Positions 1,122 through 46,026 of a DNA stretch of 49,286 nt are shown here, piece by piece; positions within the stretch are counted from its first letter, which is position 1, and each line of letters begins with the position of its first letter. The stretch spans positions 1 to 49,286 of the forward strand of contig JAKLEC010000006.1 in the NCBI GenBank assembly GCA_022711715.1, in the 5' to 3' direction. Below the pieces are notes generated by a model, which made no database searches, was not told the DNA's origin, and saw nothing but the letters and a program-made list of their open reading frames with translations. Position numbers and translations under genes: made by a program. Source of the DNA: Acidobacteriota bacterium (GTDB lineage: Bacteria > Acidobacteriota > Aminicenantia > UBA2199).

Positions 1122-1161
1122 GGCATGAAAGAGCTTCAGATTCGTGGAGATCCATGATCTT

Positions 1162-1257
1162 CGTAATTCGTGATTCGTAATTTGTAATTCGGAAGAAAAG
1201 CCGCACGCGTACGGCCTATGGCTGTTGCTAATTACGAATTACGTCTTACGAATCACG
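1162..1257. repeat. Inverted heptamer-unit element, CGTAATT type, copy 1
   Basis: The left arm has four 7-bp units (CGTAATT, CGTGATT, CGTAATT, TGTAATT; 1162-1189). The right arm has four inverse units (AATTACG, AATTACG, TCTTACG, AATCACG; 1230-1257). A 40-base centre separates them. The centre begins CGGAAGAAAAGCC, which on the other strand reads GGCTTTTCTTCCG, a core shared with the elements at 26027 and 45815. The copy lies just after the corA stop codon. The rest of the gap from 1122 to 1161 shows nothing recognisable. Confidence 0.8.
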
Positions 1258-1273
1258 ATCGCTCGTCAACGAT

Positions 1274-8803: not shown

Positions 8804-9466
8804 TCAGATCGCCTCATGGCGGTGGCGGACGATACTGCCCTCGATCATGTAGATAACGTCCTCGGCGATGTTGGTGGCATGGTCGGCGATGCGTTCCAGG
8901 TGGCGGCTGACGCGCAGGTATTCGATCAGCTGGTCGGCCTGGTCCGGGTGCTTCTTGATCTCATCCTTCAGGCGCACGAACAGGTTATGGACCATCTCGT
9001 CGATGGCGTCGTCGGAGTGGCACACCTTGTGCGCCAACGGCGCATCCAGGCGCACCAGGGCGTCCAGGGAGGAGCGCAGGGCCTCCTGCACGAGCCGGCA
9101 CAGGGGCGCAAAGTCGACGGGATCGCCGGGCAGGGCCAGCGGCGAGACGCGCAGCGAGCGCTCGGCGATATTGACCGCCTCGTCGCCGATGCGCTCCAGG
9201 TCGTTGTTGATCTTCAGCACGGCGATGATGAAACGCAGGTCGACGGCCACCGGCTGGTGCAGGGCCAGGATCTTGAGGCACTCCTCCTCGGTGTCGACCT
9301 CCCACTGATCGGCCTGGTCGTCGACCCCCAGCACCTGGCGGGCCAGGTCGGCATCCCTGGCCTGGATGGAGCGGATGGCGTCCCCCAGGTTCTTCTCGAT
9401 CATGCCGCCGTATAGGGTGATGCGCTTCTTCAGCTTCTCGATCTCGGTCTGCAGGTGCACAGCCAT
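8804..9466 (-). CDS. phoU: Phosphate signalling protein PhoU
   Basis: 220-residue two-domain helical bundle. Each half carries a PhoU metal-binding-type motif: NNDLERIGDEAVNIAE in the first domain and SRHLERIADHATNIAEDV in the second. PhoU links the Pst transporter to PhoR and represses the Pho response when phosphate is plentiful. It sits 14 bases after pstB1. The length is normal. Two other proteins in this block, the DUF47 protein and the C-terminus of the Na/Pi cotransporter, carry related helical motifs. Confidence 0.96.
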   Translation of the reverse strand: MAVHLQTEIEKLKKRITLYGGMIEKNLGDAIRSIQARDADLARQVLGVDDQADQWEVDTEEECLKILALHQPVAVDLRFIIAVLKINNDLERIGDEAVNIAERSLRVSPLALPGDPVDFAPLCRLVQEALRSSLDALVRLDAPLAHKVCHSDDAIDEMVHNLFVRLKDEIKKHPDQADQLIEYLRVSRHLERIADHATNIAEDVIYMIEGSIVRHRHEAI

Positions 9467-9480
9467 GGTGACCTCCTTGC

Positions 9481-10287
9481 TCAGCCGAAACGGCCGGTCA
9501 TGTAATCCTCAGTGCGCTTTTCGCGCGGCTGGGTGAACATGCGCGCCGTCGGCCCGTATTCTACCAAGTTGCCCTCGTAAAGGAAAGCGGTGTGGTCGGA
9601 AACTCGCGCCGCCTGCTGCATGTTGTGGGTGACGATGATGATCGTATAGCGGCCGCGCAGCTCGGCGATCAGATCCTCGACGCGAGCCGTGGCGCGAGGG
9701 TCCAGGGCCGAGGTCGGCTCATCCATGAGCAGCACCTCGGGGTCGACCGCCAGGGCGCGGGCGATGCACAGCCGCTGCTGCTGGCCCCCCGACAGGCTCA
9801 GGGCGTTGTCGTCCAGACGGTCCTTGACCTCCTCCCACAGCCCGGCCCGCTGCAGGCTGGTCTCCACCACCGCCTGCAGCTCCCGCCGCTCCAGGCTGTC
9901 GTACAACCGGCGGCCATAGGCAATGTTATTGAAGATGGACTTGGGAAAGGGGTTGGGCTTCTGAAAGACCATGCCGATGCGCCGGCGCAGGGCGACGACG
10001 TCCAGGCGCGGGCCGTAGACGTCCTGGCCGTCGAACACCAACCTGCCGGTGGTGCGCCGGCCCGGGATCAGGTCGTTCATGCGGTTGATCGAGCGCAGCA
10101 GGGTGCTCTTGCCGCAGCCGCTGGGGCCGATGATGGCCGTCACCTGGAAGCTGGGGAAGTCCAGCGTCACGTCCGTCACCGCCTGGTTGTCGCCGTAATA
10201 AAAGGAGAATTCCTGGCAATTGACATGGGCAGCGCCGGCGGCAGCGGTTGCTTCCAGGCTGGGGTTCGCGATTGGGATCTGGGTCAT
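9481..10287 (-). CDS. pstB: Phosphate ABC transporter ATPase PstB (system 1)
   Basis: 268-residue ATPase that powers phosphate import by PstSCA. All nucleotide-binding motifs are canonical: Walker [11 protein letters not shown]-loop VFQKPNPFP, signature LSGGQQQR, Walker B with [12 protein letters not shown], and H-loop VTHN. This intact set contrasts with the two PstB proteins of the second operon. It lies three bases after pstA1 and 14 before phoU. It is expected to act as a homodimer on the cytoplasmic face of the PstC1/PstA1 channel. Confidence 0.97.
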
Positions 10288-25961: not shown

Positions 25962-26026
25962 GAATGACCGTGAGGCGAACATAACACAAGGAACCGGGGA
26001 ACGCAACCAGCCCGGCAACGAACAAT

Positions 26027-26114
26027 CGTAATTCGTAAGTCGTAATTCGTTTTTCGAAACCGCAATTGCTCGAAACATTGCCTTTTTCTTCCGAATCACG
26101 AATTACGAACCACG
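26027..26114. repeat. Inverted heptamer-unit element, CGTAATT type, copy 2
   Basis: The left arm has units CGTAATT, CGTAAGT, CGTAATT and CGTTTTT (26027-26054). The right arm has AATCACG, AATTACG and AACCACG (26094-26114). A 39-base centre ends GCCTTTTTCTTCCG (26080-26093). Read in reverse complement it resembles the element at 1162-1257: same unit, same CGTAAGW variant next to CGTAATT, same TTCCG core and near-equal centre length. It lies in the divergent gap between mutL and def. Confidence 0.8.
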
Positions 26115-26139
26115 ATAGCGCGTTCCGGAGCTGTTCCTT

Positions 26140-26167
26140 GTCACGCGTCACGCGTTACGCGTCACGG
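26140..26167. repeat. Heptamer array, GTCACGC type, copy 1
   Basis: Four units: GTCACGC, GTCACGC, GTTACGC, GTCACGG. The T-variant third unit is shared with copies at 28960 (inverted) and 29168. The array ends seven bases before the def -35. Confidence 0.8.
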
Positions 26168-28935: not shown

Positions 28936-28959
28936 CCCGGTTGATCTGAGATGATCTCT

Positions 28960-28988
28960 CGTGACGCGTAACGCGTGACGCGTGACGC
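28960..28988. repeat. Heptamer array, GTCACGC type, inverted copy 2
   Basis: Units GTGACGC, GTAACGC, GTGACGC, GTGACGC. In reverse complement, 27 bases (28960-28986) are identical to 26140-26166, including the position of the variant unit. It lies 24 bases after the rsmB stop. Confidence 0.8.
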
Positions 28989-29167
28989 GGAACGGCATTC
29001 GCCGAACTTCTGACCGATCATGCTGAATCGTTTTCCAAGCTGCAATCTGATCCCTGGAAACGTTCCTTCCGAAATCGGCAGATAGAATTGGGGTGAGTGA
29101 TGCTTACTGTCACGCGCCATTCGTCAAGGTCTTCCAGCCAGTTGGGTTCGTGGGAGTGCTGCTACTC

Positions 29168-29188
29168 GTCACGCGTTACGCGTCACGG
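29168..29188. repeat. Heptamer array, GTCACGC type, copy 3
   Basis: Units GTCACGC, GTTACGC, GTCACGG, identical to the last three units of copy 1 and inverted relative to copy 2. It ends seven bases before the glgP stop. The 179 bases between copies 2 and 3 show no gene or clear terminator; a partial GTCACGC lies near 29109. Confidence 0.75.
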
Positions 29189-29195
29189 TTGTTGG

Positions 29196-45814: not shown

Positions 45815-46026
45815 CGGCATACGGCACACGGCATACGGCGGACGGTGGGAAAGGCACTTGGCGAAAGGCGTGAGGCTCAAGGTGCAGGAAAAGAAGGCTC
45901 CAAAAGCACGATCTTTGCTACTCCGGCCTTAGGCTGCCCACCGAGGGCTTTTCTCCACTTTTGCCTTTTTCCTTTTGCCTTTTGCCTTTTTTCTTCCGTA
46001 CGCCGTCTGCCGTGCGCCGTACGCCG
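45815..46026. repeat. Nested heptamer-unit inverted element, CGGCATA outer / GGC-AAAA inner
   Basis: The outer left arm has units CGGCATA, CGGCACA, CGGCATA, CGGCGGA, CGGTGGG (45815-45849). The outer right arm has TACGCCG, TCTGCCG, TGCGCCG, TACGCCG (45999-46026). Inside, a left stretch has GG every seven bases (45853, 45860, 45867, 45874, 45881). A right stretch has units TTTTGCC, TTTTTCC, TTTTGCC, TTTTGCC, TTTTTTC (45959-45993). The core GCC-T6-CTTCCG (45984-45998) precedes the outer right arm, as in the other two elements. It fills most of the 323-base gap between the anti-sigma gene and yceD. Confidence 0.78.

What the first reader, a model, noticed from the sequence alone, without database searches (positions are those of the whole stretch)
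1162..1257. Dispersed inverted element built from 7-bp units (CGTAATT type)
Two loci, here and at 26027-26114, carry four- and three-to-four-unit heptamer arms facing each other around a 39-40-base centre. The second locus is the reverse complement of the first in design. Both share a CGTAAGW variant unit and the core GSC-T4-5-CTTCCG beside one arm. Shared variants point to copying of an element rather than slippage at each site. Tandem heptamers (STRR) are known from cyanobacteria, but I know of no described family with inverted arms and this core.
Basis: partly seen in the sequence, partly recalled or inferred. Interest (0 to 1): 0.75.

Follow-up and report, generated by a model that had tools for sequence, protein, structure and literature searches.

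The report
Inverted short-repeat brackets between Aminicenantes genes

Summary
Confirmed, and much larger than reported. Both window loci are real inverted pairs of CGTRATT heptamer arms. The host is a Candidatus Aminicenantes MAG. In 433 kb of it I found 188 classified intergenic arrays, at periods 7 and 6 only, in about ten unit families. Within a gap, arms of one polarity precede arms of the other (1 exception in 178 pairs; shuffles average 44). Units of the main families have one free position; the others are nearly fixed. The block edge lies a median 18 bp from stop codons and over 100 bp from start codons; 25 of 27 convergent gaps of at least 100 bp are occupied.

A canonical ~92-bp element (CGTRATT array, SAACAGCA...TGCTGTTS hairpin core, AACACN hexamer array) has 58 copies here and 47 in the nearest relative; outside the genus only one marginal match. 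Between species most gaps stay occupied while arm families are swapped; left and right arms change together. Reverse transcriptases are absent from most genomes of the genus, and no RAYT gene examined is flanked by arrays.

Best reading: a non-autonomous palindromic repeat family spread by copying, renewed at the centre of older copies and tolerated or used at gene 3' ends. Enzyme and function unknown. Geobacter's paired short-repeat sites are the closest described kind.

The parts
1160..1191 (+). left (+) arm, CGTRATT family, four units, locus 1
1192..1229 (.). centre of locus 1 (GGAAGAAAAGCC...GGCTGTTGC inner flanks)
1230..1258 (-). right (-) arm, CGTRATT family, with the CGTAAGA variant unit; ends about 16 bp from the stop end (1274) of a minus-strand gene
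26026..26050 (+). left (+) arm, CGTRATT family with CGTAAGT unit, locus 2, between a mutL-like gene (-) and def (+)
26051..26091 (.). centre of locus 2
26092..26115 (-). right (-) arm, CGTRATT family, locus 2
26137..26166 (-). second, outer (-) arm of the same gap, CGTRACG family, just upstream of the def -35 box (26174)
28960..28994 (+). left (+) arm, CGTRACG family, 24 bp after a stop codon
29164..29187 (-). right (-) arm, CGTRACG family, 8 bp from the stop codon of the convergent gene
45815..45839 (+). left (+) arm, CGGCRTA family, 17 bp after a stop codon
45958..45995 (-). (-) arm, AAAAGGC family (CTTTTGC on the + strand)
45996..46026 (-). outer (-) arm, CGGCRTA family (CCGTACG on the + strand)

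Best explanation
A genus-wide family of non-autonomous, palindromic intergenic repeat elements. One element is: outer CGANCTAT-like edge, a + arm of about four 7-bp (or four to five 6-bp) units, an inner hairpin (SAACAGCA - loop - TGCTGTTS), and a - arm of opposite polarity. Copies spread by DNA copying from other loci, by an unidentified trans-acting enzyme or by gene conversion/template switching at the hairpin. New copies enter or replace the centre of existing ones, which yields + + ... - - stacks with no side-by-side elements. They persist in gaps free of promoters, directly behind stop codons, where they may also act as 3'-end hairpins. Shown: copies, grammar, polarity, position bias, swapping between species, paired change of arms. 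Inferred: nested or centre-directed insertion (direct support from one slot, plus the polarity rule). Unknown: the enzyme, and any function.
For: 58 copies of one 92-bp element in this genome, 47 in the nearest relative, at most 15 in other species of the genus, one marginal match outside it. Polarity: 1 of 178 pairs against a null of 44; 10 of 187 with a purely mechanical G-richness label. Shared inner motif across families, about half of arms against 9% background. In the syntenic C66 stretch against G004 (flanking anchors mostly 90-95% identical; two slots lower, 79-86%) the comparable array slots have different arm content; all but one are occupied in both genomes and one is cut down to a 70-bp remnant; slot 9222-9625 keeps the outer arms and swaps the inner element. 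The convergent slot is filled in all 13 relatives, with different families. Left and right halves of a species match each other better than those of other species (19.5 v 11.0 and 20.2 v 9.7; no permutation of 20,000 reached the observed mean). Same variant order in 13 of 22 CGTRACG arms.
Against: No mobilising gene identified. Interiors of simple CGTRACG pairs are unique, unlike a transposon that carries its interior. Target-site duplications were not established. Nearly invariant unit positions beside one saturated position point to a reader of the units, which plain selfish spread does not need. Near-complete occupancy of convergent gaps hints at function.
Confidence: 0.5

Rival explanations
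1. Functional 3'-end RNA hairpins (bidirectional terminators or mRNA stabilisers) under selection; family turnover is neutral because any stem will do.
For: Median 18 bp from stop codons, over 100 bp from starts; tandem gaps p 7e-5; 25 of 27 convergent gaps of at least 100 bp occupied. Arms covary between species. Inner stem shows some compensatory change. No excess of canonical terminators in two 20-kb stretches (9 v 12.8 and 12 v 12.5 in shuffles).
Against: Present in 16 of 37 divergent gaps of at least 100 bp, including mutL-def. Arms of one gap are often of different families and cannot pair well. No U-tract. The stop-codon position also follows if promoters simply exclude insertions.
Confidence: 0.22
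2. Binding sites for a DNA- or RNA-binding protein that reads NGTR-type units at 6-7 base steps, for example a nucleoid protein, as suggested for Geobacter's paired arrays.
For: One free position per unit beside 93-100% fixed ones in the three best-sampled families, in register over 13 copies; GT shared by most families.
Against: Two unit lengths and about ten families, at least one of them without GT, at the same kind of site; families differ between close species.
Confidence: 0.14
3. A telomerase-like or other repeat-adding polymerase extends 3' ends at breaks in the centre, making head-to-head arrays.
For: The G-rich strand usually runs 5'->3' towards the centre on both sides; periods 6 and 7; a bacterial RT that makes tandem repeats is known (DRT10, PMC12632851).
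Against: No RVT_1 match in 13 of 16 genus genomes including this one; some families (CCAAATT) have the opposite skew; arms have fairly fixed length and shared flanks.
Confidence: 0.05
4. REP/BIME elements moved by a RAYT (Y1) transposase.
For: Y1_Tnp genes in 15 of 16 genus genomes.
Against: The Y1 genes examined lack flanking arrays and have their own boundaries (GGGGTCAGGTCT, GGGGACGGAGG type); G004, with 47 canonical elements, has no Y1 match.
Confidence: 0.04
5. Independent replication slippage at each site, or an assembly artefact.
For: Tandem arrays can slip.
Against: Common cores, fixed variant orders, inverted pairing, occurrence in many independently assembled genomes.
Confidence: 0.02

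Closest known systems
Geobacter metallireducens 'putative global regulator binding sites' classes 1-3 (PMC2700814)
   Same: Short tandem arrays of 7-8 bp units, mostly in pairs on opposite strands at variable distance, multicopy, several classes in one genome.
   Different: Other unit sequences; no polarity rule, common core, free position, slot conservation or stop-codon hugging reported in the text read; the supplementary figures were not read.
Cyanobacterial STRR and TAACTGA heptamer repeats (PMC4679880)
   Same: Intergenic tandem heptamers.
   Different: Direct repeats, one unit, essentially no inverted pairs (one of 170 sets).
REP/BIME elements with RAYT transposases (PMC2817692, PMC3733652; abstracts only)
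   Same: Abundant extragenic palindromes, stacked mosaics.
   Different: Arms are tandem heptamers or hexamers; RAYT link not met here.
MITEs (own knowledge)
   Same: Non-autonomous, inverted ends, dispersed.
   Different: Tandem-array arms, variable or unique interior, no transposase partner or target duplication shown.
DNA uptake sequences of Neisseria/Haemophilus (own knowledge)
   Same: Inverted pairs behind genes, lineage-specific dialects.
   Different: Single 10-12-mers, also inside genes; here arrays are intergenic.

Membership tests
REP/BIME (RAYT-linked) | RAYT gene flanked by the repeats | tested here: not met
   Seven Y1 loci read, no CGTRATT-type arrays beside the genes; G004 has arrays but no Y1 match
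Geobacter paired short-repeat sites | short tandem arrays in opposite-strand pairs, multicopy | tested here: met
Geobacter paired short-repeat sites | unit consensus GTTGCTYN, TCTCCGTS or MTYCTGA | tested here: not met
   unit tables
STRR / TAACTGA repeats | direct tandem heptamers, no inverted partner | tested here: not met
   opposed arms are the rule
MITE | conserved interior between inverted ends | tested here: inconclusive
   yes for ATT-core-TT, no for CGTRACG pairs
MITE | target-site duplication | not tested
   element edges too variable to define by hand
Intrinsic terminator | GC hairpin followed by U-tract | tested here: not met
   terminator-like sites not above shuffles in two 20-kb stretches; arms are not followed by T-runs in the listed clusters
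RT-made repeats (DRT10/telomerase-like) | encoded reverse transcriptase | tested here: not met
   RVT_1 absent in 13 of 16 genus genomes, which are incomplete MAGs
Any Rfam family | match at gathering score | tested here: not met
   0 matches in the window

The most novel reading that the evidence does not exclude
A new class of self-renewing intergenic element: polarity-locked short-repeat brackets that grow or are exchanged only at their centre, with units that keep one position free, driven by an undescribed enzyme restricted to this lineage.
Probability: 0.25. Interest if true: 0.85.

Novelty: new variant of a known kind. Interest (0 to 1): 0.62.

Why it matters
It shows a bacterial genus in which about half of the longer gaps between genes are organised by a simple, testable grammar, and in which that DNA is replaced wholesale between species whose flanking genes are about 90-95% identical. 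If an enzyme drives it, it is an unknown DNA-copying activity; if selection holds it, it is an unknown kind of 3'-end or chromosome-structuring signal.

Tried and rejected
RAYT/Y1 linkage: not linked. Reverse transcriptase: mostly absent. Rfam: none. Canonical terminators: not above shuffles in G000; no clear contrast with two other genomes. Conserved interiors of CGTRACG pairs: none. Viral origin: no match of the core pattern in IMG/VR; nine stretches with direct CGTGATT arrays in other contexts. Literature: no paper in the library prints the repeat strings searched; none found on such repeats in Aminicenantes. My first gene calls picked antisense ORFs and were redone. A first Pfam query was out of frame and found nothing.

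Full report
Observation. They fold better than shuffles. The pattern has 133 matches in the genome and none for the reversed control.

Host. Records that encode the neighbouring peptide deformylase at 72-97% identity are titled Candidatus Aminicenantes or Acidobacteria/Acidobacteriota, one Chrysiogenales. G000 is a 2.09 Mb draft, 82% complete. CGTRATT arrays occur in 14 of the 16 genomes of the genus (this one included) and in none of the 44 other relatives searched.

Scale and grammar. I held 433 kb (largest contig, contigs chosen because they had hits, and the window; density is therefore somewhat inflated). Strong tandem runs occur at periods 7 (91) and 6 (48), with their doubles, and hardly elsewhere. 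A looser scan gives 141 period-7 arrays, 138 of them intergenic although gaps are only 14% of the sequence. Families include CGTRATT, CGTRACG, CGGCRTA, AAAAGGN, CGTRATG and the hexamers NGTGTT, AGTGTC, AGTGAT. Within a gap, + arms precede - arms: 1 exception in 178 pairs after family curation, null mean 44, minimum 21; with a mechanical G-richness label 10 of 187. Same-family opposed pairs are moderately enriched (18 v 10.4). Many families share an inner flank RACAGCA and, less often, an outer CTAT.

Unit structure. In CGTRATT, CGTRACG and NGTGTT units one position is free (A/G about half and half; A/G one to three; A/C/T) while the others are 93-100% fixed. In 13 aligned copies of the canonical element the variable columns of the arms fall at 7-bp steps in one arm and 6-bp steps in the other. 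Among 22 complete four-unit CGTRACG arms 13 have the order G-A-G-G (2.3 expected), so arms are copied whole.

Canonical element. ATT arm, core SAACAGCAATAGKTCGGCTCATGCTGTTSC, AACACN hexamer arm. Covariance model R1: 58 matches in G000, 47 in G004, 1-15 in twelve other species of the genus, none in G005 and G010, one marginal match outside the genus. The inner stem has modest covariation support (score 0.182 v 0.138 shuffled, 1 of 500; slid versions 0.02-0.07); the copies are related, so this is weak evidence.

Position. The block edge is a median 18 bp from a stop codon (60 of 74 within 40 bp) and 104 bp from a start codon (5 of 60 within 40 bp). Gaps of at least 100 bp with arrays: convergent 25/27, tandem 42/85, divergent 16/37. 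In tandem gaps the block lies nearer the stop in 34 of 42 (p 7e-5). Gene calls are from a simple codon-usage caller of my own, so single starts may be off.

Between species. In the convergent slot (window 28936-29195) inverted short-repeat DNA is present in all 13 relatives, with many unit types; in L089 it is chiefly a CCCCCCTT-type pair. In the mutL-def slot most relatives carry another family, L083 is empty and L087 is one-sided. Left and right halves match better within than between species in both slots. Against G004, the comparable array slots of the C66 stretch all differ in arm content; one is reduced in G004 to a 70-bp gap with a fused CGTGACGCGTCAC; slot 9222-9625 keeps outer arms and swaps the inner element, while an array-free gap stays alignable.

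Beyond CGTRATT. G005 and G010, which lack CGTRATT matches, still have period-7 inverted pairs (GGGTNTA, CGGTATA, CGTGACG). A sister genus (G020) has period-8 AGTTGGAA arrays and one class-level relative a GAGCATT pair; other samples of 40-80 kb have none of this kind.

Mechanism. Copying is shown; how is not. Side-by-side elements are almost absent, so new arms must arise inside old ones or replace them; one slot shows this directly. RAYT and reverse-transcriptase drivers were tested and are not supported. A role at gene 3' ends is plausible but does not explain divergent gaps or unpaired arm families. The free unit position suggests that something reads the units.

Known kinds. Geobacter metallireducens has opposite-strand pairs of short tandem arrays, annotated as possible IHF/HU sites. 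I file the present system as a new variant of that loosely defined kind, not as a member of the REP, STRR or MITE families.

Noticed in passing
L104, L113, L098, L099 (Y1_Tnp genes): RAYT-like genes of this genus are bounded by GGGGTCAGGTCTTACATTATTAC- or GGGGACGGAGGATTAA-type repeats, unrelated to the heptamer arms.
   Followed up: partly
L089, L090, L091, L094 near def; L054, L058: Some species carry a different inverted pair (CCCCCCTTAGTAAAGGGGG...CCCCCTTACTGAAGGGGGG) in the same gaps.
   Followed up: no
L201-L209 (IMG/VR contigs): Direct (not inverted) CGTGATT heptamer arrays occur at gene edges of unrelated viral contigs.
   Followed up: partly
L149:11670-11855 (G005): Inverted pair with GGGTTTA-like units that resemble plant-type telomere repeats.
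   Followed up: no
L199 (G004:C358), reverse strand about 250-1400: A gap bracketed by arrays holds an extra open reading frame in G004 that is absent from the same gap of G000.
   Followed up: no
L138 and L121 (G020): Sister genus has period-8 arrays (AGTTGGAA / TTCCAACT), one beside a duplicated tRNA-like stretch.
   Followed up: partly
L034:14029-14332 and L037:12250-12550: Larger tandem duplications (about 95 bp and 47 bp units) built from CTTTTGC and CCGTACG arrays.
   Followed up: no
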